Source: Mayamaea pseudoterrestris
Taxonomy: Eukaryota; Bacillariophyta; Bacillariophyceae; Sellaphorales; Sellaphoraceae
Direction: 5' to 3'
NCBI GenBank assembly: GCA_027923505.1
Contig: BROI01000022.1
Span: 604,941 to 668,940 of the forward strand
DNA length: 64,000 nucleotides
Position numbers and translations under genes: made by a program. Position 1 is the first letter of the stretch. The number at the start of each line of letters is the position of its first letter. The notes beneath the pieces were generated by a model. That model was not told where the DNA came from. It did not search any database and saw nothing but the letters and a program-made list of their open reading frames with translations. Shown piece by piece: positions 26,535 through 64,000 of the stretch.

Positions 26535-27224
26535 CGATTGTAACTGCTAGTGACAAGTATAGTCTCATAGAGTATACTACAAATGCTTGGCTAGTCAAGT
26601 GATGCTTGATGCCAAAGCTTAAATAAATAAAAGTCACATTGACTCACCGATTCCACTTTCTTCAGCGAGTCGAGTTGATACATGAAGTGTTAACTAATGT
26701 TGACTGCCAATGATGTTCACCAATTTCCACCAATGTTGACCAACAATACTGACTGAATTCAACATTGTTGGCTGGCATTAGACAGGCATAATTTCATGAT
26801 GTGGAAAGTGCAATAATGCATTCATCTCTAGCCCATTGCGTCTCTAAGTTTTGCCACCAGGAATGGCTGAATTTGTGGTCTGTCCATAGTAGCAGGCTGC
26901 CATGTCCCTCTCCACATGCCAATAAAGTATACATTGTTGGCTGGCAGTTGACAGGCATTGTTTCATGATGTAGAAAGTGCAATGCACGCAATGTCGAGCC
27001 ATCATGCTGAGGAAGATTAATGTCATGTCTTAGCGGTTCTTTTCAAGTACCGAACGGACACAACGTGACAGAAAATGCGCCTCGCCTCGTTCTTTCCTCC
27101 GATCTTCCATCCACATCCCGCGACCTTCCATCCTCTTCCATCATGTAATTATTCACGCTGCGCCGAGACGAGCATCAAGCCGACTGCTCTTTCCAAAAGT
27201 TTATTGGTTGTGAGGAAAAGTGTC
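26535..27224. other. Intergenic region with short-period and direct repeats
   Basis: This contains the 3' end of the DUF819 gene, several near-copies of the word AATGTTGACC/CCAATG near 26695-26760, and a pair of about 57-bp direct repeats described separately. No gene is supported up to the start of the next one. Its frame is open from an ATG at 27075, but I prefer 27225. Confidence 0.4.
26762..26985 (+). repeat. Pair of ~57-bp imperfect direct repeats
   Basis: The segment at 26762-26819 recurs at 26931-26985, offset by 169 bp. Both begin ACATTGTTGGCTGGCA, continue with GACAGGCAT and TTTCATGATGT, and end GAAAGTGCAAT. They differ at a few positions. Copies are not part of either flanking gene. 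The 169-bp offset equals the monomer length of the satellite at 44.9-60.8 kb, but I see no sequence relation. Confidence 0.75.
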
Positions 27225-30200
27225 ATGCTAGATATCTTGACTAGTGGCACTTCATCTTCAACGACACTTTTCTTACAAGCATTTGCAGTACTTTTACTCG
27301 GCATTTGCCTTTACTTCTACATTTTCAAACGATCCATGAGTAGCTCTCTGCTAAGTCCGATCATTGCCAAGGCCTTGGCGCAGTTTGTCGTTGTGGATGC
27401 GCATGACGTTCAAACGAGTCTCTTCACCAAAGCTGGAGTTTCCTTGAGCAACTGCGAGCTTCAACCAACCTTTATACAGCTAAATGAAACAACGACTGCT
27501 GTCATTACTGGAACGGTTCAACTTCTGAGTTTCTCGTGGAATTGGGGAAGTCAGCCGAACGGAGGTTCCAACTTTGTCAAGGACGCGCGACTGCTATTGG
27601 AGAAGGTGCAAGTGACGGTCACGCTCTCGTCAAATCATGATGGCAAGGATGCCAGCGCCATGGGAGCAAAGCCGCTAGGCCAAGCCGATGGTGCAGCAAC
27701 AGATGCATCCGAAAAGGACGCGCCGGTTGGTTTCGTGCAGGATCAAGTGAATCGCATACTTGACGCACTTGCCTTTGACGTTTCGGACTTGAGCGTCAAG
27801 ATTGTGATTGCCGGCAAGGATTACAATGTTGCACCGGACGAGCAGTCGTCAAGCCTCGTTTTGGGATTGGCTGGCGTAACGCTCGAATCACAGAAACAAG
27901 GCGGGGATAATGGACTGATCGTTCAAACCATGGCGCTAAATGGCTTGTTTGCCAACGTTTTGGTTCACAATAGTGACGTTGGCACGAGCAGTAACTTTGC
28001 GCTGTTGGAACCAGTTTCGTACGCAACGACCGTCACGCGGCCAAGTGGACTGCGCGACTTGACTGCACTGCTGCAGCATGGACTTGAAACTGTCGGAGCT
28101 TCGACTGACCAAGGCATTGTTGTGCATGCTGGACTGGAACAAGTTGGTCTTTTGCATCGGCTGGGAAATGTTTTGCTGGTGAGCGAGGTAGCGAGCAAGG
28201 ATGAACTAAAGTCAATGGCGGCGGCTCTGGTGAACGACGGCTCCGAGGGCGAAGAAAAGGTTGAAGTTTTTGAGGAGCATGGACTAGAAACCATTACTTC
28301 GACAGACAGCGAGAACGCACCCACCAGCAGCTTGGCGTCGGCGGACCAAGAAGGGTCATTCGTCAAGCTCCCACTGTCGGCAATTTCAATTATATTGCCC
28401 AACGACACGAAAATCTCCATGACTGGTCTGATGTTAGACTACAAGCTTGATGGCAGTAGCATGACTGTAACTGGACGAGAAGGAGTTTCCATCAACGGAT
28501 ATCCTATCATGGCAATGTCCGACTCGTGCGTGTGGGAAGCGAACTTGATCGAGTCGCAGTTCCGCGCCTATTCGTCCAATCCGCAGCAAACGGACGAGGA
28601 ATCAGTGGTCAAAATTTGCGCGCGGCAAAAGGAACTAGATTGTTTGAAGGACGGGGCGCAGCAGCTAATCGGCATTGCGCATGCCCTAGCTACTGCTGAT
28701 TCAGATGCTCACCTGGCCGTGGCGAACACCAAGACTGCCAGTAGTGCCGATGAGGCCGCATCGTCGACTTCGGCCAAGGCATGGTCGGCGGACATTGCGA
28801 GTATGGCATTCATGTTGCGTGATACGAATGATGACTTGACGGTTGAGCTGTTGGTGCGTGATCTAAAGGCTCGCTCGGCGGGCATGACTTTATCGATTGG
28901 TTCAGTCGACAAGTGTTATTTACCCCATACTATTCGACTGGGCCAGCCCTTGCTAAATACGAAACTTCAGTACAATGGCACCCTGCTCACTCTGGATATT
29001 GACGACGTTGTGGCTGTACTAGAGGAACCTGATGTTTCGCAAAAGCCTGTCGATGATGTCGAGGACATCAAGCTGGCAACGATGGAGCAGCCCGCGAGCG
29101 CATTGTCGGCTAGTGACAAGGCGGTGGACGATGGATCAATGATACTTCCATTTGGAATCCATGCCCTTGCCAAGAGCATTAAAGTATACAATACAGACGG
29201 CAGGTCGGTTCACACGACAATCAAAGCCTTGCGGTTTGCCGCGGGTCCTGATCTGTCAGAGGATGGACAGCAGCCGACTGGTGCAATTCGCACACTCGTC
29301 ATGATGGAAGAGTTCAACCATGACATGCTGAGCATGAACTTGGCCAAGTTATCAGCCGTCGTTCACCCTGGAAATTTGAACCGCATTGACAAGCTTGACT
29401 TTGATGCTCGTGTGATTGCGATTGCGAAAGGTTACAGCGTGTTTGCGTGGCGACGTTTTTTCGCGACAGGCGATGAACGACGAGAACCGAAAAAGGCGAA
29501 GACAAAGTCAAAGAAGCAGAACGCACCAATTTACCTTCCTTATGCTCACGTCCATGAAATCAAGCTAAAGATTGCGGTCAAAGCGACTTTGGTGTCGGCA
29601 AAGGACGCAACTTTGCATCTTGGCGAGTTTAGAGGAAATGAATCGACTACGTTGAACGATATGATCATGTGGTATACGCAGCGAGTTCTTTCTAATGCAC
29701 CGGGTGTGATCACGAACGCCAGTCTTCTCGGCTTTAACGTTTCGGATACGGCTGCAAGCTATGGCGGCGCTGTAATGCTAAGCAGTGCTGTCGGTGCGTT
29801 GGGAAGCGCTGCTGCTCCCGTTGCTGGCGTGCTTGGCATGGTCGGCTTTGATGCCGTGAAGAATACGATAAACGCAGGGAAGAGGGAGAGAGGAGCTGAA
29901 GACGATGACAAACGTCAGCTTGGAGATTTCTTTCGAGGCGTTGGTCAGTTGGGGAAAGAGGCAGCGCAAGGAGGGGCGTCTGCGAGAGGAAAAAGTCAGG
30001 GTCAACAGGCTGATGCACTTGATTGGGCACTTGGCGCGACTGGGAACGTAGGGCATTATGCAGACCAGAACAAAGCTAGACTTGGAGGTGCTGGAGTCGG
30101 CGCGGTTGGATTTGGATATGGATTCATGCTCGGTGGTCCAGTTGGGGCGCTGGCTGGTGCCTTGATTGCCAGTCGTGCAACCAGTGGCACAATCAACGTC

Positions 30201-30251
30201 GTGGATCGCAGGTTGAGAGGAAAGAAAGGAGAGATGGCTGTCCGGCAGTAG
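27225..30251 (+). CDS. Large membrane-anchored protein with chorein/VPS13-like N-terminus and Gly-rich C-terminus
   Basis: Intronless, 1008 residues from the ATG at 27225 (an in-frame ATG at 27075 would add 50 residues of Pro/His-rich sequence). One membrane helix lies at about 12-34. The next segment (SPIIAKALAQFVVVDAHDVQ, then GVSLSNCELQPTF) resembles the start of chorein-type proteins, in which a short helix precedes 'L-x-L-x-N-x-x-L' beta strands. The middle is predicted beta-rich with acidic linkers. The C-terminal 200 residues contain hydrophobic, Ala/Gly-rich stretches (SSAVGALGSAAAPVAGVLGM and VGFGYGFMLGGPVGALAGAL) like glycine-zipper membrane segments. Bridge-like lipid-transfer proteins share the first feature, but I cannot prove membership. 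Function is unknown, probably at an endomembrane. Confidence 0.6.
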   Translation: MLDILTSGTSSSTTLFLQAFAVLLLGICLYFYIFKRSMSSSLLSPIIAKALAQFVVVDAHDVQTSLFTKAGVSLSNCELQPTFIQLNETTTAVITGTVQLLSFSWNWGSQPNGGSNFVKDARLLLEKVQVTVTLSSNHDGKDASAMGAKPLGQADGAATDASEKDAPVGFVQDQVNRILDALAFDVSDLSVKIVIAGKDYNVAPDEQSSSLVLGLAGVTLESQKQGGDNGLIVQTMALNGLFANVLVHNSDVGTSSNFALLEPVSYATTVTRPSGLRDLTALLQHGLETVGASTDQGIVVHAGLEQVGLLHRLGNVLLVSEVASKDELKSMAAALVNDGSEGEEKVEVFEEHGLETITSTDSENAPTSSLASADQEGSFVKLPLSAISIILPNDTKISMTGLMLDYKLDGSSMTVTGREGVSINGYPIMAMSDSCVWEANLIESQFRAYSSNPQQTDEESVVKICARQKELDCLKDGAQQLIGIAHALATADSDAHLAVANTKTASSADEAASSTSAKAWSADIASMAFMLRDTNDDLTVELLVRDLKARSAGMTLSIGSVDKCYLPHTIRLGQPLLNTKLQYNGTLLTLDIDDVVAVLEEPDVSQKPVDDVEDIKLATMEQPASALSASDKAVDDGSMILPFGIHALAKSIKVYNTDGRSVHTTIKALRFAAGPDLSEDGQQPTGAIRTLVMMEEFNHDMLSMNLAKLSAVVHPGNLNRIDKLDFDARVIAIAKGYSVFAWRRFFATGDERREPKKAKTKSKKQNAPIYLPYAHVHEIKLKIAVKATLVSAKDATLHLGEFRGNESTTLNDMIMWYTQRVLSNAPGVITNASLLGFNVSDTAASYGGAVMLSSAVGALGSAAAPVAGVLGMVGFDAVKNTINAGKRERGAEDDDKRQLGDFFRGVGQLGKEAAQGGASARGKSQGQQADALDWALGATGNVGHYADQNKARLGGAGVGAVGFGYGFMLGGPVGALAGALIASRATSGTINVVDRRLRGKKGEMAVRQ

Positions 30252-44929: not shown

Positions 44930-45800
44930 TGTATTCTGTAGAGTATGGACATTTGAAAATTATGGCATCTGCTGGCTGAGACCGGTGAGAACTTCTCACC
45001 AGTCCCATTGCATTCTACCAAGGGACCAGCCAGGCAATCCATCTTGTAGTGCACATGATAAAAGAATGTTAACACCATTCTGGCTTAATTTGGGCCTACA
45101 CATGGCTCAAGGTATGGGCTATTGAATATCACAGCCAGCTGCTGTCCACAGAGACACTAGCTTGTCATCTTGTTTTGTGGCGCATCTGAAATAAGGATGT
45201 ATTGTGACAGCCATGACTCATTAAACCCCGCCACCCCACCCAAGGGAACAAGTATTGAACTAGTTTGCTTCGGGTCCTCAACAGCACTGCTTGATTTGGG
45301 CAGTCCACATGCCTAGAGAGACACTAGCTTGTCATCTTGTTTTGTGGCGCATCTGAAATATGGATGTTAGCACCATTCTGGCTTGATTTGGGCATACACA
45401 TGGCTCAAGGTATGGGCATTTGAAAATTACGGCATCTGCTGGCTGAGACTGATGAGAACTCCTCACCAGTCACATTGCAGTCAACCAAGGGGCAAGCCAG
45501 GCAATCTTCCATGTAGCAGACCTGAAATAAGGATGTTAGCACCATTCTGGCTTGATTTGGGCATACACATGGCTCAAGGTTTGGACATTTGCCAGTCACA
45601 TTGCCGTCCACTGAGGGACCAGCCAAGCAATCCATCTTGTAGCGCACCTGAAATACGGATGTTAGCACCATTCTGGCTTGATTTGGGCATGCACATGGCT
45701 CAAGGTATGAGCGTCTGACAATCATGGCACCTGCTGCTTGAGACTGGTGACAAGTTGTCACCAATCACACTCATTGCAGTCCATAGAGACACTAGCCTGT
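44930..45800 (+). repeat. Diverged 169-bp satellite copies in inverted orientation (block A)
   Basis: This block holds about five degenerate units spaced roughly 169 bp, e.g. GATGTTAGCACCATTCTGGC near 45363 and again near 45532. Read on the minus strand it aligns with the main 169-bp monomer: the accidental peptides TTCHQSQ..., ARMVLTS... and RYKM..LAG appear in both. It is therefore an older, inverted relative of arrays C1 and C2. The inverted repeat at 44984-45000 has arms GGTGAGAA and TTCTCACC. A 43-bp word starting GAGACACTAGCTTGTC occurs at 45151 and 45318. Confidence 0.8.
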
Positions 45801-46862
45801 GTATGTGCGGAGTCTCATGGCAGAGGGATGGGCTTCACACCCAAGGTGACAAGCCTTTGCATATTAATCCCTTAGAAAATGTATTTTCTTTGTATTCCCA
45901 GAATTGGCAGGCCATTCTGGCAGTCTGAAGTGCCACTTGAGGTGCACTGCTAGTAGATCCAACAAGTTGATGGATCTGCCGAGTCTCACCATGACATACA
46001 TGGTGGTGGAGACTGGAATGGGTGGGTGCAACTGACCCAAGCATTGGCCCATCATGACACCAAACATGAATTGAAATGGATTGGGGGGCTCAACAGGCAA
46101 CAATGATGGTTTGTGTAGCCAAAAAGGGTGCACGGCTGGCACATTCAATAAATGGTTGAATGTGCGGAGTCTCATGGCAAAGGGATGGGTTTCACACCCA
46201 AGGTGACAAGCCTTTGCGTATTAATCCCTTAAAAAATGTATATTCTTTGTATTCCTGAACTGGCAGGCCATTCTGGCAGTCTGGAGTGCCACTTGAGGTG
46301 GGCTGCTAGCAGATCCCACAAGGTGTTGGATCTGCTGAGTCTCACCATGACATACATGGTGGTGGAGACTGGAATGGGTGGGTGCAACTGACCCAAGCAT
46401 TGGCCCATCATGACACCAAACATGAATTGAAATGGATTGGGGGGCTCAACAGGCAACAATGATGGTTTGTGTAGCCAAAAAGGGTGCACGGCTGGCACAT
46501 TCAATAAATGGTTGAATGTGCGGAGTCTCATGGCAAAGGGATGGGTTTCACACCCAAGGTGACAAGCCTTTGCGTATTAATCCCTTAAAAAATGTATATT
46601 CTTTGTATTCCTGAACTGGCAGGCCATTCTGGCAGTCTGGAGTGCCACTTGAGGTGGGCTGCTAGCAGATCCCACAAGGTGTTGGATCTGCTGAGTCTTA
46701 CCATGTCATACATGGTGGTGGAGACTGGAATGGGTGGGTGCAACTGACCCAATCATTGGCCCATCATGACACCAAACATGAATGGAAATGGATTGGGGGG
46801 CTCAACAGGCATGAATGATGGTTGGTGTAGCCAAAAAGGGTGCATGGGTGGCACATTCAACA
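45800..46862 (+). repeat. 356-bp dimeric satellite, three units (block B1)
   Basis: CGGAGTCTCATGGC recurs at 45808, 46165 and 46521, a period of 356-357 bp. Each unit contains two AGTCTC boxes, each next to an inverted repeat, so it is a dimer of about 178-bp halves. Its reverse complement aligns along much of its length with the 346-bp unit of block D. Unit 3 runs directly into the 169-bp array. Confidence 0.88.
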
Positions 46863-48493
46863 ATTGGTTAAAGGCACCTACAGCAAGCCCTGTAGGTGCC
46901 CACATTACACCAGAATGGTGCCAACATCATTATTCAGGCTGCGCTACAACATGGTAGGCTTGGCAGGTGTCTCAGGGAATGGCAATGTATTTGGTGAAAA
47001 CTTGCCACCAGTCTCAGCCCACAGATGCCATGACATTCAAACGCCCCTACAGCAAGCCCTGTAGGCGCCCACATTACACCAGAATGGTGCCAGCATCATT
47101 ATACAGGCTGCGCTACAAGATGGTAGGCTTGGCGGGTGTCTCAGGGAATGGCAATGTATTTGGTGACAACTTGTCACCAGTCTCACCCCACAGATGTTGT
47201 GAGATTCAAACGCCCCTACAGCCAGCCCTGTAGGTGCCCCCATTACATAAAAATGGTGCCAACATCATTATACAGGCTGCGCTACAAGATGGTAGGCTTG
47301 GCGGGTGTCTCAGGGAATGGCAATGTATTTGGTGACAACTTGTCACCAGTCTCAGCCCTCAGATGCCGTGACATTCAAACGCCCCTACAGCCAGCCCTGT
47401 AGGTGCCCAAATTACACCGGAATGGTGCCAACCCTCATTATTCAGGCTGCGCTACAAGATGGTAGGCTTGGCGGGTGTCTCAGGGAATGGCAATGTATTT
47501 GGTGACAACTTGTCACCAGTCTCAGCCCCCAGATGCCTTGACATTCAAACTCCCCAACAGCAAGCCCTGTTGGTGCCCCCATTACACCAGAATGGTGCCA
47601 ACATCATTATTCAGGCTGCGCTACAAGATGGTAGGCTTGGTGGGTGTCTCAGGGAATGGCAATGTATTTGGTGACAAATTGTCACCAGTCTCAGCCCGCA
47701 GATGCCGTGACATTCAAACGCCCCTACAGCAAGCCCTGTAGGTGCCCAAATTACACCAGAATGGTGCCAACATCATTATTCAGGCTGCGCTACAAGATGG
47801 TAGGCTTGGCGGGTGTCTCAGGGAATGGCAATGTATTTGGTGACAACTTGTCACCAGTCTCAGCCCGCAGATGCCGTGACATTCAAACGCCCCTACAGCA
47901 AGCCCTGTAGGTGCCCCCATTACACCAGAATGGTGCCAACATCATTATGCAGGCTGCGCTACAAGATGGTAGGCTTGGTGGGTGTTTCAGGGAATGGCAA
48001 TGTATTTGGTGACAACTTGTCACCAGTCTCAGCCCGCAGATGCCGTGACATTCAAACGCCCTTACAGCAAGCACTGTAGGTGCCCAGATTACTCCAGAAT
48101 GGTGCCAACATCATTATTCAGGCTGCGCTACAAGATGGTAGGCTTGGCGGGTGTCTCAGGGAATGGCAATGTATTTGGTGACAACTTGTCACCAGTCTCA
48201 GCCCGCAGATGCCTTGACATTCAAACGCCCCAACAGCAAGTCCTGTAGGTGCCACCATTACACCAGAATGGTGCCAACATCAGTATTCAGGCTGCGCTAC
48301 AAGATGGTAGGCTTGGTGGGTGTCTCAGGGAATGGCAATGTATTTGGTGACAACTTGTCACCAGTCTCAGCCCGCAGATGTTGTGACATTCAAACGCACC
48401 TACAGCAAGCCCTGTAGGTGCCCCCATTACACCAGAATGGTGCCAACATCATTTTTAAGGCTGCGCTACAAGTTGGTACCATTGGTGGGTGTT
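46863..48493 (+). repeat. 169-bp satellite array C1, about 9.6 copies
   Basis: Exact 169-bp spacing is seen for the word TGTCTCAGGGAATGGCAATG from 46967 to 48320. Each monomer carries an inverted repeat with arms GGTGACAA/TTGTCACC around one base, and a second with arms CCTACAG/CTGTAGG around CAAGCC. The first copy extends the second to 11-bp arms (46873-46900). Monomers differ by 2-5%. Because 169 is not a multiple of 3, the accidental frames rotate and end after about 88 codons, so the array is non-coding. Confidence 0.95.
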
Positions 48494-49308
48494 TGGCAGG
48501 CCATTCTGGCAGTCTGAAGTGCCACTTGAGGTGCACTGCTAGTAGATTCAACAAGGTGTTGGATCTGCTGAGTCTCACCATGACATACATGGTGGTGGAG
48601 ACTGGAATGGGTGGGTGCAACTGACCCAAGCATTGGCCCATCATGACACCAAACATGAAGTAAAATGGATTGAGGGGCTCAACAGGCAAAAATGATGGTT
48701 CGTGTGGCCAAAAAGGGTACATGGCTGGCACATTCAACTAATGGTTGAATGTGCTGAGTCTCATGGCAAAGGGATGGGTTTCACACCCAAGGTGACAAGC
48801 CTTTGCGTACTAATCACCTAAAAAACAAATGCTCTTTGTATTTCAGAATTGGCAGGCCATTCTGGCAGTCTGAAGTGCCACTTGAGGTGCACTGCTAGTA
48901 GATTCAACAATTTGTTGAATCTGCCGAGTCTCACCATGACATACATGGTGGTGGAGACTGGAATGGGTGGGTGCAACCAACCCAAGCATTGGCAAATCAT
49001 GACACCAAACATGAATTGAAATGGATTGAGGGGCTCATCAGGCAACAATGAAGGTTCGTGTAGCCAAAAAGGGTGCACGGCTGGCACATTCAACCAATGG
49101 TTGAATGTGCGGAGTCTCATGGCAAATGGATGGGTTTCACACCCAAGGTGACAAGCCTTTGCGCTCTTTTTACTTAAAAAATGTATTTTCTTTGTATTCC
49201 AGAACTGGCAGGCTATTCTGGCAGTCTGAAGTGCTACTTGAGGTGCGCTGCTAGCAGATCCAACAAGGTGTTGGATCTGCCGAGTCTCACCATGACAAAT
49301 TGTTGAAT
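48494..49308 (+). repeat. Further 356-bp-type units (block B2)
   Basis: One partial and one complete copy of the 356-bp class plus a start of another, continuing the orientation of block B1. Units carry inverted repeats such as 49084-49110, whose 13-nt arms (GCACATTCAACCA and its complement) flank a single A. The last copy changes into block D near 49290-49310. Confidence 0.85.
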
Positions 49309-52300
49309 GTGCTAGCAGTGAGCCATGCTTTAACTACAGGATCATCAGCTTTGCCTGCTAAGAAATCCAACCCCTTTCAGTTAATGTTTGTTGACATTTT
49401 GATCCAATGCTGGGGTGACCATCACCCCAATATCCACCAGCCTGGCTGCCATGGTGAGACTCAGCAGATCCAATAACTTGTTGGATCTGCCAGCAGTGCA
49501 CCTCAGCTGGTACACAGACCGCCAGGATGGCCTGCAGACCCAAGAATATCAAAACCAAAATACATATGATACAATTGGACCAATAGCCATGTCAATTGTG
49601 GTGTGGAACGCAGCATTGTGCCATGAGACTGCGCACATTCAACAAGTTGTTGAATGTACTTGCAGTGCACCCTTTTTGGTTATAGGATCATCAGCCTTGC
49701 CTGCTAAGCCATCCAACCCCTTTCCACTGATGTTTGTTAACATTTGATCCAATGCTGGAGTGACTATCACCCCAATATCCACCAGCCTGGCTGCCATGGT
49801 GCGAGTCAGCAGATCCAATAAGTTGTTCGATCTGCCAGTGGTGCACCTCAGCAGGTACACAGACAGCAGAATGGCTTGCAGACCAAAGAATATTAAAACC
49901 ATATTACATATAATACAATTGGACCAATAGTCATGTCAATTGTGGTGTGGAACGCAGCATTGTGCCATGAGACTGCGCACATTCAACAAGTTGTTGAATG
50001 TGCTAGCAGTGCACCCTTTTTGGCTATAGGATCATCAGCCTTGCCTGCTAAGCCATCCAACCCCTTTCCACTAATGTTTGTTGACATTTTGATCCAATGC
50101 TGGGGTGACTATCACCCCAATATCCACCAGCCTGGCTGCCATGGTGAGACCCGGCAGATCCAATAACTTGTTGGATCTGCCAGCAGTGCACCTCAGCTGG
50201 TACACAGACCGCCAGGATGGCCTGCAGACCCAAGAATATCATAACCAAAATACATATGATACAATTGGACCAATAGCCATGTCAATTGTGGTGTGGAACG
50301 CAGCATTGTGCCATGAGACTGCGCACATTCAACAAGTTGTTGAATGTGCTAGCAGTGCACCCTTTTTGGCTATAGGATCATCAGCCTTGCCTGCTAAGCC
50401 ATCCAACCCCTTTCCACTAATGTTTGTTGACATTTTGATCCAATGCTGGGGTGACTATCACCCCAATATCCACCAGCCTGGCTGCCATGGTGAGACTCGG
50501 CAGATCCAATAACTTGTTGGATCTGCCAGTGGTGCACCTCAGCTGGTACACAGACAGCCAGAATGGCCTGCAGACCCAAGAATATCAAAACCAAAATACA
50601 TATGATACAATTGGACCAATAGTCATGTCAATTGTGGTGTGGAACGCAGCATTGTGCCACGAGACTGCGCACATTCAACAAGTTGTTGAATGTGCTAGCA
50701 GTGCACCCTTTTTGGCTATAGGATCATCAGCCTTGCCTGCTAAGCCATCCAACCCCTTTCCACTAATGTTTGTTGACATTTTGATCCAATGCTGGGGTGA
50801 CTATCACCCCAATATCCACCAGCCTGGCTGCCATGGTGAGACTCGGCAGATCCAATAACTTGTTGGATCTGCCAGCAGTGCACCTCAGCTGGTACACAGA
50901 CCACCAGGATGGCCTGCAGACCCAAGAATATCAAAACCAAAATACATATGATACAATTGGACCAATAGTCATGTCAATTGTGGTGTGGAACGCAGCATTG
51001 TGCCATGAGACTGCGCACATTCAACAAGTTGTTGAATGTGCTAGCAGTGAGCCATGCTTTAACTACAGGATCATCAGCCTTGCCTGCTAAGCCATCCAAC
51101 CCCTTTCCACTAATGTTTGTTGACATTTTGAGCCAATGCTGGGGTGACTATCACCCCAATATCCACCAGCCTGGCTGCCATGGTAAGACTCGGCAGATCC
51201 AATAAGTTGTTGCATCTGCCAGCGGTGCACCTCAGCTGGTACACAGACAGCCAGAATGGCCTGCAGACCCAAGAATATCAAAACCAAAATACATATGATA
51301 CAATTGGACCAATAGTCATGTCAATTGTGGTGTGGAACGCAGCATTGTGCCATGAGACTGCGCACATTCAACAAGTTGTTGAATGTGCTAGCAGTGCACC
51401 CTCTTTGGCTATAGGATCATCAGCCTTGCCTGCTAAGCCATCCAACCCCTTTCCACTAATGTTTGTTGACATTTTGATCCAATGCTGGGGTGACTATCAC
51501 CCCAATATCCACCAGCCTGGCTGCCATGGTGAGACCTGGCAGATCCAATAACTTGTTGGATCTGCCAGCAGTGCACCTCAGCTGGTACACAGACAGCCAG
51601 AATGGCCTGCAGACCCAAGAATATCAAAACCAAAATACATATGATACAATTGGACCAATAGTCATGTCAATTGTGGTGTGGAACGCAGCATTGTGCCATG
51701 AGACTGCGCACATTCAACAAGTTGTTGAATGTGCTAGCAGTGCACCCTTTTGGCTATAGGATCATCAGCCTTGCCTGCTAAGCCATCCAACCCCTTTCCA
51801 CTAATGTTTGTTGACATTTTGAGCCAATGCTGGAGTGACTATCACCCCAATATCCACCAGCCTGGCTGCCATGGTGAGACTCGGCAGATCCAATAAGTTG
51901 TTGGATCTGCCAGTGGTGCACCTCAGCTGGTACACAGACAGCCAGAATGGCCTGCAGACCCAAGAATATCAAAACCAAAATACATATGATACAATTGGAC
52001 CAATAGTCATGTCAATTGTGGTGTGGAACGCAGCATTGTGCCATGAGACTGCGCACATTCAACAAGTTGTTGAATGTGCTAGCAGTGCACCCTTTTTGGC
52101 TATAGGATCATCAGCCTTGCCTGCTAAGCCATCCAACCCCTTTCCACTAATGTTTGTTGACATTTTGAGCCAATGCTGGGGTGACTATCACCCCAATATC
52201 CACCAGCCTGGCTGCCATGGTGAGACTCGGCAGATCCAATAAGTTGTTGGATCTGCCAGCGGTGCACCTCAGCTGGTACACAGACTGCCAGGATGGCCTG

Positions 52301-55300
52301 CAGACCCAAGAATATCAAAACCAAAATACATATGATACAATTGGACCAATAGTCATGTCAATTGTGGTGTGGAACGCAGCATTGTGCCATGAGACTGCGC
52401 ACATTCAACAAGTTGTTGAATGTGCTAGCAGTGCACCCTTTTGGCTATAGGATCATCAGCCTTGCCTGCTAAGCCATCCAACCCCTTTCCACTAATGTTT
52501 GTTGACATTTTGATCCAATGCTGGGGTGACTATCACCCCAATATCCACCAGCCTGGCTGCCATGGTGAGACTCGGCAGATCCAATAACTTGTTGGATCTG
52601 CCAGCAGTGCACCTCAGCTGGTACACAGACCGCCAGGATGGCCTGCAGACCCAAGAATATCAAAACCAAAATACATATGATACAATTGGACCAATAGTCA
52701 TGTCAATTGTGGTGTGGAACGCAGCATTGTGCCATGAGACTGCGCACATTCAACAAGTTGTTGAATGTGCTAGCAGTGCACCCTTTTTGGCTATAGGATC
52801 ATCAGCCTTGCCTGCTAAGCCATCCAACCCCTTTCCACTAATGTTTGTTGACATTTTGAGCCAATGCTGGGGTGACTATCACCCCAATATCCACCAGCCT
52901 GGCTGCCATGGTGAGACCTGGCAGATCCAATAACTTGTTGGATCTGCCAGCAGTGCACCTCAGCTGGTACACAGACAGCCAGAATGGCCTGCAGACCCAA
53001 GAATATCAAAACCAAAATACATATGATACAATTGGACCAATAGTCATGTCAATTGTGGTGTGGAACGCAGCATTGTGCCATGAGACTGCGCACATTCAAC
53101 AAGTTGTTGAATGTGCTAGCAGTGAGCCATGCTTTGGGCTATAGGATCATCAGTCTTGCCTGCTAAGCCATCCAACCCCTTTCCACTAATGTTGGTTGAC
53201 ATTTTGAGCCAATGCTGGAGTGACTATCACCCCAATATGCACCAGCCTGGCTGCCATGGTGAGACTCGGCAGATCCAATAAGTTGTTGGATCTGTCAGTG
53301 GTGCACCTCAGCTGGTACACAGACAGCTAGAATGGCCTGCAGACCAAAGAATATCAAAACCAAAATACATATGATACAATTGGACCAAAAGTCACGTCAA
53401 TAGTGGTGCGGAACGCAGCATTATGCCATGAGACTGCGCACATTCAACAAGTTGTTGAATGTGCTAGCAGTGAGCCATGCTTTAACTACAGGATCATCAG
53501 CCTTGCCTGCTAAGCCATCCAACCTGTTTCCACTAATGTTTGTTGACATTTTGAGCCAATGCTGGGGTGACTATCACCCCAATATCCACCAGCCTGGCTG
53601 CCATGGTGAGACCTGGCAGATCCAATAACTTGTTGGATCTGCCAGCAGTGCACCTCAGCTGGTACACAGACCACCAGGATGGCCTGCAGACCCAAGAATA
53701 TCAAAACCAAAATACATATGATACAATTGGACCAATAGTCATGTCAAATTTGGTGTGGAACGCAGCATTGTGCCACGAGACTGCGCACATTCAACAAGTT
53801 GTTGAATGTGCTAGCAGTGCACCCTTTTTGGCTATAGGATCATCAGCCTTGCCTGCTAAGCCATCCAACCCCTTTCCACTAATGTTTGTTGACATTTTGA
53901 GCCAATGCTGGGGTGACTATCACCCCAATATCCACCAGCCTGGCTGCCATGGTGAGACTCGGCAGATCCAATAAGTTGTTGGATCTGCCAGTGGTGCACC
54001 TCAGCTGGTACACAGACAGCCAGAATGGCCTGCAGACCCAAGAATATCAAAACCAAAATACATATGATACAATTGGACCAATAGTCACGTCAATTGTGGC
54101 GTGGAACACAGCATTGTGCCATGAGACTGCGCACATTCAACAAGTTGTCGAATGTGCTAGCAGTGAACCATGCTTTGGGCTACAGGATCATCCGCCTTGC
54201 CTGCTAAGCCATCTAACCCCTTTCCACTAATGTTGGTTAATATTTTGATCCAATGCTGGGGTGACTAACACCCCAATATCCACCAGCCTGTCTGCCATGG
54301 TGAGACGTGCCATGAGACTGCGCACATTCAACAAGTTGTTGAATGTGCTAGCAGTGCACCCTCTTTGGCTATAGGATCATCAGCCTTGCCTGCTAAGCCA
54401 TCCAACCCCTTTCCACTAATGTTTGTTGACATTTTGATCCAATGCTGGGGTGACTATCACCCCAATATCCACCAGCCTGGCTGCCATGGTGAGACCTGGC
54501 AGATCCAATAACTTGTTGGATCTGCCAGCAGTGCACCTCAGCTGGTACACAGACAGCCAGAATGGCCTGCAGACCCAAGAATATCAAAACCAAAATACAT
54601 ATGATACAATTGGACCAATAGTCATGTCAATTGTGGTGTGGAACGCAGCATTGTGCCATGAGACTGCGCACATTCAACAAGTTGTTGAATGTGCTAGCAG
54701 TGCACCCTTTTGGCTATAGGATCATCAGCCTTGCCTGCTAAGCCATCCAACCCCTTTCCACTAATGTTTGTTGACATTTTGAGCCAATGCTGGAGTGACT
54801 ATCACCCCAATATCCACCAGCCTGGCTGCCATGGTGAGACTCGGCAGATCCAATAAGTTGTTGGATCTGCCAGTGGTGCACCTCAGCTGGTACACAGACA
54901 GCCAGAATGGCCTGCAGACCCAAGAATATCAAAACCAAAATACATATGATACAATTGGACCAATAGTCATGTCAATTGTGGTGTGGAACGCAGCATTGTG
55001 CCATGAGACTGCGCACATTCAACAAGTTGTTGAATGTGCTAGCAGTGCACCCTTTTTGGCTATAGGATCATCAGCCTTGCCTGCTAAGCCATCCAACCCC
55101 TTTCCACTAATGTTTGTTGACATTTTGAGCCAATGCTGGGGTGACTATCACCCCAATATCCACCAGCCTGGCTGCCATGGTGAGACTCGGCAGATCCAAT
55201 AAGTTGTTGGATCTGCCAGCGGTGCACCTCAGCTGGTACACAGACTGCCAGGATGGCCTGCAGACCCAAGAATATCAAAACCAAAATACATATGATACAA

Positions 55301-57300
55301 TTGGACCAATAGTCATGTCAATTGTGGTGTGGAACGCAGCATTGTGCCATGAGACTGCGCACATTCAACAAGTTGTTGAATGTGCTAGCAGTGCACCCTT
55401 TTGGCTATAGGATCATCAGCCTTGCCTGCTAAGCCATCCAACCCCTTTCCACTAATGTTTGTTGACATTTTGATCCAATGCTGGGGTGACTATCACCCCA
55501 ATATCCACCAGCCTGGCTGCCATGGTGAGACTCGGCAGATCCAATAACTTGTTGGATCTGCCAGCAGTGCACCTCAGCTGGTACACAGACCGCCAGGATG
55601 GCCTGCAGACCCAAGAATATCAAAACCAAAATACATATGATACAATTGGACCAATAGTCATGTCAATTGTGGTGTGGAACGCAGCATTGTGCCATGAGAC
55701 TGCGCACATTCAACAAGTTGTTGAATGTGCTAGCAGTGCACCCTTTTTGGCTATAGGATCATCAGCCTTGCCTGCTAAGCCATCCAACCCCTTTCCACTA
55801 ATGTTTGTTGACATTTTGAGCCAATGCTGGGGTGACTATCACCCCAATATCCACCAGCCTGGCTGCCATGGTGAGACCTGGCAGATCCAATAACTTGTTG
55901 GATCTGCCAGCAGTGCACCTCAGCTGGTACACAGACAGCCAGAATGGCCTGCAGACCCAAGAATATCAAAACCAAAATACATATGATACAATTGGACCAA
56001 TAGTCATGTCAATTGTGGTGTGGAACGCAGCATTGTGCCATGAGACTGCGCACATTCAACAAGTTGTTGAATGTGCTAGCAGTGAGCCATGCTTTGGGCT
56101 ATAGGATCATCAGTCTTGCCTGCTAAGCCATCCAACCCCTTTCCACTAATGTTGGTTGACATTTTGAGCCAATGCTGGAGTGACTATCACCCCAATATGC
56201 ACCAGCCTGGCTGCCATGGTGAGACTCGGCAGATCCAATAAGTTGTTGGATCTGTCAGTGGTGCACCTCAGCTGGTACACAGACAGCTAGAATGGCCTGC
56301 AGACCAAAGAATATCAAAACCAAAATACATATGATACAATTGGACCAAAAGTCACGTCAATAGTGGTGCGGAACGCAGCATTATGCCATGAGACTGCGCA
56401 CATTCAACAAGTTGTTGAATGTGCTAGCAGTGAGCCATGCTTTAACTACAGGATCATCAGCCTTGCCTGCTAAGCCATCCAACCTGTTTCCACTAATGTT
56501 TGTTGACATTTTGAGCCAATGCTGGGGTGACTATCACCCCAATATCCACCAGCCTGGCTGCCATGGTGAGACCTGGCAGATCCAATAACTTGTTGGATCT
56601 GCCAGCAGTGCACCTCAGCTGGTACACAGACCACCAGGATGGCCTGCAGACCCAAGAATATCAAAACCAAAATACATATGATACAATTGGACCAATAGTC
56701 ATGTCAAATTTGGTGTGGAACGCAGCATTGTGCCACGAGACTGCGCACATTCAACAAGTTGTTGAATGTGCTAGCAGTGCACCCTTTTTGGCTATAGGAT
56801 CATCAGCCTTGCCTGCTAAGCCATCCAACCCCTTTCCACTAATGTTTGTTGACATTTTGAGCCAATGCTGGGGTGACTATCACCCCAATATCCACCAGCC
56901 TGGCTGCCATGGTGAGACTCGGCAGATCCAATAAGTTGTTGGATCTGCCAGTGGTGCACCTCAGCTGGTACACAGACAGCCAGAATGGCCTGCAGACCCA
57001 AGAATATCAAAACCAAAATACATATGATACAATTGGACCAATAGTCACGTCAATTGTGGCGTGGAACACAGCATTGTGCCATGAGACTGCGCACATTCAA
57101 CAAGTTGTCGAATGTGCTAGCAGTGAACCATGCTTTGGGCTACAGGATCATCCGCCTTGCCTGCTAAGCCATCTAACCCCTTTCCACTAATGTTGGTTAA
57201 TATTTTGATCCAATGCTGGGGTGACTAACACCCCAATATCCACCAGCCTGGCTGCCATGGTGAGACCTGGCAGATCCAGATCCAATAAGTTGTTGGATCT
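49309..57300 (+). repeat. 346-bp dimeric satellite array, about 23 units (block D)
   Basis: The period is 345-347 bp, seen for example in CATGGTGAGACTCGGCAGAT. Each unit is a dimer of 172- and 174-bp halves: both halves begin GCCATG, then GAGACT, an inverted repeat and GTGCACC. The first inverted repeat has 13-nt arms GCACATTCAACAA (e.g. 49977-50003). The second has 11-nt arms GGCAGATCCAA around a 7-base loop (e.g. 50153-50181). A third, GGGGTGA/TCACCCC, lies between (e.g. 50102-50118). Many 66- and 135-codon frames are by-products. Several units are shortened or diverged (about 53130-53460 and 54100-54310). Confidence 0.95.
51347..57266 (+). repeat. 2,960-bp tandem duplication inside block D
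   Basis: 51347-54306 and 54307-57266 match at a constant offset of 2,960 bp. Rare unit variants (CTCTTTGGCT, GTTGGTTGAC, the TTATGCCATG unit, the final TGGTTAATATTTTG unit) appear at corresponding places in both. The one difference I found is T at 54291 against G at 57251. The junction reads GAGAC|GTGCCATGAGAC, so a short GAGAC word is shared at the join. Confidence 0.92.
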
Positions 57301-57479
57301 TTTACATGGTGATTCAGACTGGAATGGGTGGGTGCAACTGACCCAAGCATTGGCCCATCATGACACCAAACATGAATTGAAATGGATTGGGGGGCTCAAC
57401 AGGCAACAATGATGGTTTGTGTGGCCAAAAAGGGTGCATGGCTGGCACATTCAACCATTGGTTAAAGGCATTGGTTAAA
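57301..57479 (+). repeat. Fragment of the 356-bp class linking D to C2
   Basis: It starts abruptly after the last 346-bp unit and matches the second part of a 356-bp unit (GGAATGGGTGGGTGCAACTG). It ends at the same TTGGTTAAAGG boundary that precedes array C1, here with a 13-bp word (CATTGGTTAAAGG) duplicated. Confidence 0.85.
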
Positions 57480-60400
57480 GGCACCTACAGCAAGCCCTGT
57501 AGGTGCCCCTATTACACCAGAATGATGCCAACATCATTATTCAGGCTGCGCTACAAGATGGTAGGCTTGGCGGGTGTCTCAGGGAATGGCAATGTATTTG
57601 GTGACAACTTGTCACCAGTCTCAGCCCGCAGATGCCGTGACATTCAAACGCCCCAACAGCAAGCCCTGTAGGTGCCCCCATTACACCAGAATGGTGCCAA
57701 CATCATTATTCAGGCTGCGCTACAAGATGGTAGGCTTGGCGGGTGTCTCAGGGAATGGCAATGTATTTGGTGACAACTTGTCACCAGTCTCAGCCCGCAG
57801 ATGCCGTGACATTCAAACGCCCCTACAGCAAGCCCTGTAGGTGCCCAAATTACACCAGAATGGTGCCAACATCATTATTCAGGCTGCGCTACAAGATGGT
57901 AGGCTTGGCGGGTGTCTCAGGGAATGGCAATGTATTTGGTGACAAGTTGTCACCAGTCTCAGCCCGCAGATGCCGTGACATTCAAACGCACCTACAGCAA
58001 GCCCTGTAGGTGCCCAAATTACACCAGAATGGTGCCAACATCATTATTCAGGCTGCGCTACAAGATGGTAGGCTTGGCGGGTGTAACAGGGCATGGCAAT
58101 GTATTTGGTGACAACTTGTCACCAGTCTCAGCCCGCAGATGCCGTGACATTCAAACGCCCCAACAGCAAGCCCTGTAGGTGCCCCCATTACACCAGAATG
58201 GTGCCAACATCATTATTCAGGCTGCGCTACAAGATGGTAGGCTTGGTGGGTGTCTCAGGGAATGGCAATGTATTTGGTGACAACTTGTCACCAGTCTCAG
58301 CCCGCAGATGCCGTGACATTCAAACGCACCTACAGCAAGCCCTGTAGGTGCCCAGATTACACCAGAATGGTGCCAACATCATTATTCAGGCTGCGCTACA
58401 AGATGGTAGGCTTGGCGGGTGTCTCAGGGAATGGCAATGTATTTGGTGACAACTTGTCACCAGTCTCAGCCCGCAGATGCCGTGACATTCAAACGCCCCA
58501 ACAGCAAGCCCTGTAGGTGCCCCCATTACACCAGAATGGTGCCAACATCATTATTCAGGCTGCGCTACAAGATGGCAGGCTTGGCGGGTGTCTCAGGGAA
58601 TGGCAATGTATTTGGTGACAACTTGTCACCAGTCTCAGCCCGCAGATGCCATGACATTCAAATGCCCCAACAGCAAGCCCTGTAGATGCCCAGATTACTC
58701 CAGAATGGTGCCAACATCATTATTCAGGCTGCGCTACAAGATGGTAGGCTTGGCGGGTGTCTCAGGGAATGGCAATGTATTTGGTGACAACTTGTCACCA
58801 GTCTCAGCCCGCAGATGCCGTGACATTCAAACGCCCCAACAGCAAGCCCTGTAGGTGCCCAAATTACACCAGAATGGTGCCAACATCATTATTCAGGCTG
58901 CGCTACAAGATGGTAGGCTTGGTGGGTGTCTCAGGGAATGGCAATGTATTTGGTGACAACTTGTCACCAGTCTCAGCCCGCAGATGCCGTGACATTCAAA
59001 CGCACCTACAGCAAGCCCTGTAGGTGCCCAAATTACACCAGAATGGTGCCAACATCATTATTCAGGCTGCGCTACAAGATGGTAGGCTTGGCGGGTGTCT
59101 CAGGGAATGGCAATGTATTTGGTGACAACTTGTCACCAGTCTCAGCCCGCAGATGCTGTGACATTCAAACGCCCTAACAGCAAGCCCTGTAGGTGCCCCC
59201 ATTACACCAGAATGGTGCCAACATCATGTCTCAGGGAAAGGCAATGTATTTGGTGACAACTTGTCACCAGTCTCAGCCCGCAGATGCCATGACATTCAAA
59301 CGCACCTACAGCAAGCCCTGTAGGTGACCAAATTACACCAGAATGGTGCCAACATCATTATTCCGGCTGCGCTACAAGATGGTAGGCTTGGCGGGTGTCT
59401 CAGGGAATGGCAATGTATTTGGTGACAACTTGTCACCAGTCTCAGCCCGCAGATGCCGTGACATTCAAACGCCCCAACAGCAAGCCCTGTAGGTGCCCCC
59501 ATTACACCAGAATGGTGCCAACATCATTATTCAGGCTGCGCTACAAGATGGTAGGCTTGGCGGGTGTCTCAGGGAATGGCAATGTATTTGGTGACAACTT
59601 GTCACCAGTCTCAGCCCGCAGATGCCGTGACATTCAAACGCACCTACAGCAAGCCCTGTAGGTGCCCAGATTACTCCAGAATGGTGCCAACATCATTATT
59701 CAGGCTGCGCTACAAGATGGCAGGCTTGGCGGGTGTCTCAGGGAATGGCAATGTATTTGGTGACAACTTGTCACCAGTCTCAGCCCGCAGATGCCGTGAC
59801 ATTCAAATGCCCCAACAGCAAGCCCTGTAGATGCCCAGATTACTCCAGAATGGTGCCAACATCATTATTCAGGCTGCGCTACAAGATGGTAGGCTTGGCG
59901 GGTGTCTCAGGGAATGGCAATGTATTTGGTGACAACTTGTCACCAGTCTCAGCCCGCAGATGCCGTGACATTCAAACGCCCCTACAGCAAGCCCTGTAGG
60001 TGCCCAAATTACACCAGAATGGTGCCAACATCATTATTCAGGCTGCGCTACAAGATGGTAGGCTTGGCGGGTGTCTCAGGGAATGGCAATGTATTTGGTG
60101 ACAACTTGTCACCAGTCTCAGCCCGCAGATGCCGTGACATTCAAACGCCCCAACAGCAAGCCCTGTAGGTGCCCCCATTACACCAGAATGGTGCCAACAT
60201 CATTATTCAGGCTGCGCTACAAGATGGTAGGCTTGGCGGGTGTCTCAGGGAATGGCAATGTATTTGGTGACAACTTGTCACCAGTCTCAGCCCGCAGATG
60301 CCGTGACATTCAAACGCCCCTACAGCAAGCCCTGTAGGTGCCCAAATCACACCAGAAATGGTGCCAATTTCATTATTCAGGCTGCGCTACAAGATGGTAG

Positions 60401-60798
60401 GCTTGGCGGGTGTCTCAGGAAATGGCGATGTATTTGGTGACAACTTGTCACCAGTCTCAGCCCGCAGATGCCGTGACATTCAAACGCCCCAACAGCAAGC
60501 CCTGTAGGTGCCCAGATTACTCCAGAATGGTGCCAACATCATTATTCAGGCTGCGCTACAAGATGGTAGGCTTGGCGGGTGTCTCAGGGAATGGCAATGT
60601 ATTTGGTGACAACTTGTCACCAGTCTCAGCCCGCAGATGCCGTGACATTCAAACGCCCCAACAGCAAGCCCTGTAGGTGCCCCCATTACACCAGAATGGT
60701 GCCAACATCATTATTCAGGCTGCGCTACAAGATGGTAGCAATGGTGGGTGTCTCAGGGAATGGCAATGTATTTGGTGACAAGTTGTCACCAGTCTCAG
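57480..60798 (+). repeat. 169-bp satellite array C2, about 20 copies
   Basis: Same monomer and orientation as C1, with 169-bp spacing from 57574 to 60748. One copy near 59226 lacks about 38 bp and one near 60350 has a single-base insertion. Monomers fall into variants by the words CCCCTACAG, CCCCAACAG or CACCTACAG and by the following CCCAAATTAC, CCCCCATTAC or CCCAGATTAC; these alternate irregularly. The array ends at CAGTCTCAG, followed by unrelated sequence. Confidence 0.95.
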
Positions 60799-63322: not shown

Positions 63323-63406
63323 GTTATGAGGGACTGTTTAACATAATTTATAGTAGTACGATATTTGTTTGTCGATAAAATTAGCGACACACGATGTTGA
63401 TGCAAA

Positions 63407-64000
63407 TTAGTTGGGCTTGCAGTTACTATCAGCCGCCAAGACGCAAGCTCCAGCCGTCGGCAGGGTGATGAAGCAATCAATATCCTTGTCATACTTGGCC
63501 TTGAAGGCATCCTTCATGGCCTTGACGACATTATCAACACAGTCTCGCTTAACAAGCGTAACGGTGCATCCACCAAAACCACCACCCGTAATGCGCGAGC
63601 CAAAGACACCTTCCGTCTTTTGCGCAACCTCCACCAACAAGTCAATTTCTTCGCATGAAACTTCAAAGTCCGTCTTTAAACTCTCATGACTCTCATTCAT
63701 CAACTTGCCAACCCGCTCCCAAACTCCCAGCCGCAGAGAAATTTTGCATTCCTTGGTGCGCGTGTTTTCCGTCACGTAGTGCCTGCCCCGCCGAAAGGCG
63801 ACACTATCGCAGCGGTCCTTGGTTTGCTCCACATCCTGCAGCGTTGCGTCGCGCATGCTGCCAACGTGGTAGAGTGGAATCTGCTGCATGGCATCCAAGC
63901 AATCGTTCAGTTCGCGGCGGCGATCGCCATACTCCGAGTCGGCAATCTCGTGTTTCACATGCGAGTTTGTGACTAGAATGGTAGGCTTGTCGTTGACATC
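63407..64000 (-). CDS. GALK1: Galactokinase, C-terminal part, cut by the window edge
   Basis: The minus-strand frame is open from the window end (64000) to its stop at 63407, 197 residues. GSRITGGGFGGCTVTLV is the third GHMP-kinase motif in the galactokinase form. VTNSHVKHEIADSEYGDRRR corresponds to the family's 'NS...H.L..S.YN.RR.EC' segment upstream of it. The enzyme phosphorylates galactose to galactose 1-phosphate using ATP, first step of the Leloir pathway in the cytosol. The N-terminal signature (GRVNLIGEH) is outside the window. The gene converges with the TLDc gene, 84 bp between stops. Confidence 0.93.
   Translation of the reverse strand, partial: DVNDKPTILVTNSHVKHEIADSEYGDRRRELNDCLDAMQQIPLYHVGSMRDATLQDVEQTKDRCDSVAFRRGRHYVTENTRTKECKISLRLGVWERVGKLMNESHESLKTDFEVSCEEIDLLVEVAQKTEGVFGSRITGGGFGGCTVTLVKRDCVDNVVKAMKDAFKAKYDKDIDCFITLPTAGACVLAADSNCKPN

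What the first reader, a model, noticed from the sequence alone, without database searches (positions are those of the whole stretch)
44930..60798. Satellite units keep hairpin symmetry while arm sequence changes
Seen directly: every repeat class has GAGACT (or its complement) beside an inverted repeat centred on a CAAGTTG-like core. Arms differ but stay complementary. Three paired differences: GGTGACAA/TTGTCACC (47162-47178) against GGTGAGAA/TTCTCACC (44984-45000); CCTACAG/CTGTAGG (most C1 copies) against CCAACAG/CTGTTGG (47554-47573); arms GCACATTCAACAA (49977-50003) against GCACATTCAACCA (49084-49110), each with its exact complement. Counter-evidence: many C2 copies have a mismatched CCAACAG/CTGTAGG pair. 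Inference: the dyad itself may matter (cruciform, hairpin RNA, or a protein that binds symmetric sites), or hairpin-templated correction keeps arms alike.
Basis: partly seen in the sequence, partly recalled or inferred. Interest (0 to 1): 0.85.

Follow-up and report, generated by a model that had tools for sequence, protein, structure and literature searches.

The report
Conserved palindrome boxes in algal satellites
Repeated DNA scattered through a diatom genome carries long mirror-image boxes whose letters, rather than merely their ability to pair, stay the same between arrays, which points to a docking site for a two-part protein and away from a hairpin kept by paired mutations.

Summary
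The dyads are real: perfect stems of 9 bp or more occur at 5.3 per kb in the array against 0.045 per kb in the rest of the window. The three quoted paired differences are at the stated coordinates. The proposed covariation fails. Across 21 array groups of the 346/356-bp family, 108 inferred arm changes at dyad A gave no compensated pair; 173 at dyad B gave one double event; pair counts match shuffles. At dyad C compensation exceeds shuffles but sits at one pair, in one divergent subfamily.

What is conserved is sequence. The A arms (GCACATTCAAC/GTTGAATGTGC) are intact in 20 of 21 array consensuses, some only 67% identical to the window unit, while three of the five centre bases vary. Arms of A and C change 2.2 and 3.3 times more slowly than the rest; B is weaker, broken in 13 of 21. 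Recognised neighbours are mostly 169-179 bp apart, at about 42 sites on at least 23 of 41 contigs.

Best reading (inferred, about 0.5): a homodimeric protein's binding site in dispersed nucleosome-length satellites, analogous to the CENP-B box. No protein, chromatin or RNA data were available.

The parts
44930..45802 (.). Degenerate mixed start of the array with E-type (44984-45000) and C-type (45745-45763) dyads; 126-bp repeats at 45466-45706
45803..46869 (-). 356-bp class, 3.0 copies; same family as the 346-bp class read in reverse
   Evidence: TRF; reverse-strand hits at 72%
46870..48492 (-). 169-bp class, 9.6 copies, with dyad C and the weaker dyad D (CCTACAG/CTGTAGG)
48493..49297 (-). 356-bp class, 2.3 copies
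49295..57278 (+). 346-bp class (TRF rows 49295-54306 and 54307-57278); neighbouring A and B dyads are about 177 and 169 bp apart (example: centres 49990, 50167, 50336)
57279..57486 (.). Junction with a piece of B dyad and a fragment of the 356-bp class
57487..60798 (-). 169-bp class, about 19.6 copies, 20 C dyads; the array ends just after a C dyad and AGTCTCAG
49969..49974 (+). GAGACT box beside an A dyad (example)
   Evidence: conservation
49977..50003 (.). Dyad A (example): 11-bp arms, 5-nt centre; arms intact in 20 of 21 array consensuses
50153..50181 (.). Dyad B (example): GCAGATCC...GGATCTGC; inner mismatch here; broken in 13 of 21 array consensuses, 8 of them sharing one inherited mismatch
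47161..47179 (.). Dyad C (example), TGGTGACAACTTGTCACCA
44984..45000 (.). Dyad E, GGTGAGAACTTCTCACC: the compensated variant of dyad C
47554..47573 (.). Doubly changed copy of dyad D, 1 of 265 aligned monomers
51346..57266 (+). Recent tandem duplication of a 2960-bp block inside the 346-bp array (51346-54306 and 54306-57266; 2 mismatches in 2961)

Best explanation
The region is an array of nucleosome-length satellite DNA, one of many dispersed arrays in a diatom genome. Each roughly 170-bp step carries a palindromic box. Shown: the boxes exist, recur mostly at 169-179 bp, and in dyads A and C (less in B) the arm letters are conserved beyond the rest of the unit, in A with a sharp 5' edge and a partly free centre, and without covariation inside types A and B. 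Inferred: the box is the binding site of a homodimeric DNA-binding protein, each subunit reading one half-site (GTTGAATGTGC in A, GTTGGATCTGC in B), so that letters are kept and a change of specificity shows on both arms. The protein would organise satellite chromatin or aid the upkeep of arrays, as CENP-B does on alpha satellite. Which protein and which process are not known.
For: The A and B windows rank 0 and 2 (counting from 0; rank 1 overlaps A) of 319 27-bp windows for agreement among 21 array consensuses; arms 0.957 against 0.809 for the rest. Inferred changes per column: A arms 5.09, rest 11.35, p 4.8e-7; C arms 2.17, rest 7.15, p 8.8e-7; B arms 7.65, p 0.0023. Moving the arm mask around the unit gives a mean as low at 4 of 346 offsets for A and 2 of 169 for C, observed offset included. 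The two columns just 5' of A change 11 and 30 times and A's outermost G 22 times, while the next ten arm columns change 1-9 times; the five centre columns 19, 5, 27, 4, 12. A and B share AGCAGTGCACC at the same offset (4 of 2000 shuffles reach the score), and their 11-bp arms (B as in arrays outside the window's own clade, which has a T at the eleventh base) differ at exactly two positions, both mirrored on the other arm; by my own arithmetic chance gives about 1 in 495. Commonest spacing of recognised neighbours: 169, 170, 179 (B to A), 178, 177, 169 (A to B), 169 in 191 of 240 (C to C).
Against: No protein, binding, chromatin or expression data. Dyad B is only mildly constrained (49 of 346 offsets as low), is broken in 13 of 21 array consensuses and has lost its right arm in arrays C14 and C6d. 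Dyad C shows compensated change at one pair above shuffles (4 against 0.7). Other blocks of the unit are conserved too (windows 143-145, around TTTGGCTATAGGATCATCAGC). GAGACT is not specially conserved in A. Two of A's five centre columns are conserved as well (5 and 4 changes). The 3' edge of A is softer (flank changes 10, 2, 3, 7, then 15, 16), and C's flanks are conserved too (3.38 changes per column). Array consensuses are not independent. The arrays used were those reachable from three window queries, and 20 chosen regions could not be fetched.
Confidence: 0.5

Rival explanations
1. Structure itself is selected: the dyads act as cruciforms or as hairpins in a satellite RNA, so arms may change if they change together.
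For: Perfect stems up to 13 bp at 5.3 per kb. The type differences A/B (two pairs) and C/E (one pair) are compensated, and C's pair 99/105 co-changes above shuffles. Just outside the C arms, pair 92/112 has C-G in 10 and T-A in 8 units, though T-G, a mismatch in DNA, in 261 of 279. Dyad symmetries enriched at some centromeres are reported (abstract and passages of PMC9070824).
Against: No excess covariation inside types A and B; 102 of 108 arm changes in A and 169 of 173 in B broke the pair without a partner change; one-sided changes spread through arrays, e.g. one pair in 19 units of C26 (23 aligned), 12 of C18 (16 aligned), 14 of C6c (24 aligned). No Rfam family reached its gathering score.
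Confidence: 0.12
2. Hairpin-templated (quasipalindrome) correction copies one arm onto the other and keeps dyads alike without selection.
For: It would produce perfect palindromes with changing arms, as the finding suggests; the one compensated pair in C fits it as well as selection does.
Against: Copying should turn a good part of corrected one-arm changes into compensated pairs. Observed: none of 108 in A and one double event in 173 in B; re-pairing was mostly by return to the consensus base (4 against 0 in A, 16 against 3 in B). It also predicts arms that drift between arrays, but A's arms are intact in 20 of 21 consensuses with the same letters.
Confidence: 0.04
3. The arrays are centromeric satellites and the boxes are this diatom's CENP-B-box counterpart at centromeres.
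For: Nucleosome-length units, an A/B dimer, a conserved box, recent higher-order duplication.
Against: Too many places: by my grouping of the rows listed, about 42 sites more than 20 kb apart on 23 of 41 contigs, 14 contigs with two or more. Arrays lie close to ordinary genes (DnaJ ORF ends 44828, TLDc ORF starts 61850; a GDT1 ORF beside both L012 and L026 arrays and an FTO ORF beyond L012's). Passages of PMC7082073 describe Phaeodactylum CENP-A regions as short, simple, AT-rich and non-repetitive.
Confidence: 0.12
4. The boxes are relics of transposable-element ends or binding sites, and arrays grew from element copies; conservation reflects a transposase or its recent activity.
For: Dispersed arrays; RVT_2 (Copia-type) reverse transcriptase ORFs in or beside some arrays (L016, L017, L031).
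Against: No ORF of 200 aa or more lies in the window array. Array edges and breaks do not favour dyads: 19 of 224 against 36.3 expected, though many of these breaks are alignment artefacts. A CTAG end after the palindrome, as Helitrons have (recalled), is present in 102 of 312 A modules only.
Confidence: 0.12
5. Neutral: palindromes arose by chance in founder units and look conserved because arrays are recently related or exchange units.
For: Arrays are homogenised and share ancestry; C and E units mix in the same arrays.
Against: Conservation is concentrated in the arms, with a sharp 5' edge in A, in units often only 66-75% identical to the window unit; exchange tracts would be expected to conserve flanks as well.
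Confidence: 0.1

Closest known systems
[quoted passage not shown]
   Same: Short conserved box inside a fast-evolving nucleosome-length satellite; dimeric unit; box in alternate monomers there, two alternating boxes here.
   Different: The boxes here are long palindromes in four letter versions; arrays are dispersed at many sites per contig; no binding protein is known. The 17-bp box printed in that paper has no window match with up to 3 mismatches, and a recalled core form has none in the 44 loci.
Dyad symmetries / non-B DNA at centromeres (Kasinathan and Henikoff, as described in passages of PMC9070824)
   Same: Strong enrichment of dyads in satellite DNA.
   Different: Those are described as under 10 bp and proposed to act through structure; here stems reach 11-13 bp and letters, not pairing, are conserved. 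Centromere location is not shown.
Tribolium madens satellites with short, repeat-level and macro-dyads (passages of PMC13081366)
   Same: Satellite arrays with dyads at unit level and inverted subarrays; the window also has subarrays in both orientations.
   Different: No conserved macro-dyad rule was found here; orientations of A/B and C subarrays vary among loci.

Membership tests
Nucleosome-length satellite DNA | Head-to-tail arrays of roughly 150-180-bp units or multiples | tested here: met
   Periods 169, 346, 356; box spacing mostly 169-179
Nucleosome-length satellite DNA | Related arrays at several genomic sites | tested here: met
   Listed hits on 23 of 41 contigs
Satellite with a conserved protein-binding box (CENP-B-box-like) | A short box conserved above the rest of the unit between arrays | tested here: met
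   for A and C; weak for B
Satellite with a conserved protein-binding box (CENP-B-box-like) | A protein binds the box | not testable with these tools
   No binding data
CENP-B box proper | The 17-bp motif printed in PMC8122249 | tested here: not met
   0 window matches with up to 3 mismatches; recalled core form 0 of 44 loci, one window match at about 33747, outside the array
Centromeric satellite | Coincides with CENH3 chromatin | not testable with these tools
   No ChIP data
Centromeric satellite | About one major location per chromosome | tested here: not met
   14 contigs carry two or more sites (grouped by hand; lists truncated; contigs may not be whole chromosomes)
Structure-maintained hairpin | Compensatory changes in the stem in excess of chance | tested here: not met
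   for A and B; dyad C has one compensated pair above shuffles
Known structured RNA (ribozyme and others) | Match to an Rfam model above its gathering score | tested here: not met
   10 matches, all below gathering scores, E >= 4.8

The most novel reading that the evidence does not exclude
Two (or four) different palindromic boxes, A and B alternating once per nucleosome and C/E in sister arrays, are read by paralogous homodimeric proteins; the boxes diverge only by symmetric double changes when a protein's specificity changes. This would be a dispersed, multi-letter satellite code in a diatom, analogous to but independent of CENP-B.
Probability: 0.15. Interest if true: 0.7.

Novelty: new member of a known kind. 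Interest (0 to 1): 0.4.

Why it matters
[quoted passage not shown] A long symmetric box kept across many diverged arrays in a stramenopile gives a concrete bait for finding another satellite-binding protein. It also shows that dyads in satellites need not mean selection on cruciforms: in the two best-sampled types here letters are kept and pairing as such is not.

Tried and rejected
Covariation inside dyad types: rejected for A and B. Breakpoints at dyads: window junctions looked that way by eye, but overall 19 of 224 against 36.3 expected; a first version of the script was contaminated by opposite-strand palindrome hits and was discarded. A fixed orientation rule between A/B and C arrays: read off and dropped, since L025 and the window itself break it. 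Ribozyme or other RNA family: none at gathering score. Telomere repeats TTAGGGTTAGGG: none in 44 loci. The A and C patterns in viral contigs: none. Homology of the two half-units beyond the roughly 65-bp module: none outside the masked centre. CENP-B box: none in the array. Literature: among the rows listed (9, 13, 13, 6, 1 and 12 of 69) no title or abstract start deals with this satellite; passages were read in PMC13081366, PMC8122249, PMC7082073 and PMC9070824, no whole paper.

Limits: alignments were seeded from single window units; of 361 hits 49 with under 250 aligned columns were dropped, of 306 C hits 24 with under 130. Some of the 21 array groups and 15 C loci are neighbours on one contig. 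In the A pair test one misaligned row of 72 was left out. Fetched regions were picked from hits; the close 356-bp relatives on C40, C2:2535k, C33, C9, C22:282k, C6:977k and several 169-bp arrays were not obtained. Trees are FastTree with parsimony changes and midpoint roots, no simulation.
Full report
What the region is. The window lies at G000:C22:604941-668940 of a 30.6-Mb, 41-contig genome. Its TLDc protein has diatom relatives among the named hits (Amphora, Epithemia, Nitzschia, Cylindrotheca, Seminavis, Odontella); its best relatives, at 63-64% identity, are unnamed jgi/ena records. From 44930 to 60798 runs a composite satellite: a degenerate start, 356-bp units, 169-bp units, 356-bp units, 346-bp units, and 169-bp units again. 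The 356-bp class is the 346-bp class reversed and diverged (72%). A 2960-bp block inside the 346-bp array is duplicated with 2 mismatches in 2961.

The dyads are real. Perfect stems of at least 9 bp with loops up to 9 occur at 5.29 per kb in the array and 0.045 per kb in 1-44900. They fall into few types: A GCACATTCAAC-5-GTTGAATGTGC, B GCAGATCCAACAACTTGTTGGATCTGC, C TGGTGACAANTTGTCACCA, E GGTGAGAANTTCTCACC, and the weaker D CCTACAG-6-CTGTAGG. Exact forms of A, B, C or E occur in 31 of the 36 loci L009-L044 (three of the other five, L018, L030 and L044, had no unit matched). Neighbouring satellites of 174, 176 and 183 bp lack perfect stems of 9 bp or more in the stretches examined, except one unit of the 174-bp family.

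Where the family lives. Three window queries gave hits on 23 of 41 contigs (each list cut at about 150 rows and only part of the candidate regions scored, so this is a lower bound). Grouping the listed hits by hand at more than 20 kb gives about 42 sites, with two or more on 14 contigs. Some arrays sit between ordinary genes. One block occurs twice: a GDT1 ORF lies beside the arrays of both L012 (C1) and L026 (C29), and the other flank, with an FTO ORF in L012, matches L026 at 97% (GDT1-side flank 92%); there are 13 aligned units on C1 and 3 on C29, so array length differs between the copies.

Covariation test. I aligned 312 units of the 346/356-bp family from 21 array groups (49 shorter hits dropped) and 282 units of the 169-bp family from 15 loci (24 dropped). 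On trees built without the dyad columns, A had 108 arm changes from a paired state: none compensated, 102 broke the pair with no partner change, and 4 re-pairings were by return to consensus. B had 173: one compensated double event (counted from both arms), 169 broke the pair. C had 37, of which 8 were compensated, that is four double events, all at pair 99/105. Same-branch co-changes of true partners against shuffled partners were 3 against 3.4 (sd 1.2) in A, 3 against 1.8 (sd 1.3) in B and 4 against 0.7 (sd 0.7) in C. An independent pair count on distinct sequences gave 0 of 11 pairs with a change on both sides for A (71 sequences; shuffled mean 0.9) and 3 of 13 for B (83 sequences; shuffled mean 3.1). 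The C compensation is the C-G to G-C change that defines E: 8 of 281 monomers, all in the divergent subfamily of the window start, L025 and L036, where E and C units lie side by side. This is the one result in favour of paired change. One-sided changes are common at array level: 13 of 21 B consensuses carry a broken pair (8 share one inherited T-G mismatch), 1 of 21 A consensuses.

Conservation test. The arm letters stay. The A and B windows rank 0 and 2 of 319 for agreement between array consensuses, although units are as little as 66% identical to the query (67% for the lowest with A intact). Arm columns change 5.09 (A), 7.65 (B) and 2.17 (C) times against 11.35, 11.35 and 7.15 for the rest. 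Shifting the arm mask round the unit gives a mean as low at 4 of 346 offsets for A, 49 of 346 for B and 2 of 169 for C, so A and C are convincing and B is weak. A's centre averages 13.4 changes, but two of its five columns change only 5 and 4 times. The 5' edge of A is sharp, the 3' edge softer. Arrays C14 and C6d have lost B's right arm in the 7 of 8 units where the region is aligned.

Between types. A and B share the downstream block AGCAGTGCACC at the same offset (4 of 2000 shuffles reach the score), while the upstream block alone is not significant (139 of 2000). Their 11-bp arms differ at exactly two positions, both mirrored (B taken from arrays outside the window's own clade). By my own arithmetic this has a chance of about 1 in 495 if the right arm took two random changes. 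So symmetry is kept between types although, in A and B, it is not kept through paired changes within a type.

Interpretation. Conserved arm letters, variable centre positions, a sharp 5' edge in A, no covariation within A and B, and symmetric differences between types fit a site read by a homodimer, one half-site each. Spacing of mostly 169-179 bp puts one site per nucleosome length (gaps of 346-349 bp also occur where the box between was not an exact match). This is inference: no protein, binding, chromatin or RNA was examined. [quoted passage not shown] the CENP-B box itself is absent from the array. Centromere function is possible for some arrays but not supported by their number and gene neighbourhood, and Phaeodactylum centromeres are described as non-repetitive (PMC7082073, passages).

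Verdict. The feature is a new satellite family of a known kind with unusually well-kept palindromic boxes.

Noticed in passing
window 26764-26986: Part of a 174-bp satellite family (76-78% identical to stretches of L031 and L033) lies alone upstream of the ORF at 27075-30251.
   Followed up: partly
window 51346-57266: A 2960-bp block of 346-bp units is duplicated in tandem with 2 mismatches in 2961, a very recent higher-order amplification.
   Followed up: yes
L012 (C1:674500-684499) and L026 (C29:203500-208000): A duplicated block around the array (GDT1 ORF on one side in both; the other flank matches at 97%) has 13 aligned units in one place and 3 in the other.
   Followed up: partly
L031:714-1831, L033:1-1520, L021:1-1057, L025:3733-4751, L036:3404-3961: Three further nucleosome-length satellites (174, 176, 183 bp) adjoin these arrays, nearly without perfect dyads.
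   Followed up: partly
window 45912-45920, 47079-47087, 51251-51259: CCAGAATGG (or its complement) appears in the 356-, 169- and 346-bp classes, with CCAGAA also in the 174- and 176-bp consensus units; it may be a second box.
   Followed up: partly
L016, L017, L031: Reverse transcriptase ORFs of the RVT_2 (Copia) type lie within or next to satellite arrays.
   Followed up: no
window 63400-64000: The contig seems to end 3.2 kb beyond the array, in what reads like a gene (a galactokinase by eye, not checked), so this end does not look like a telomere.
   Followed up: no
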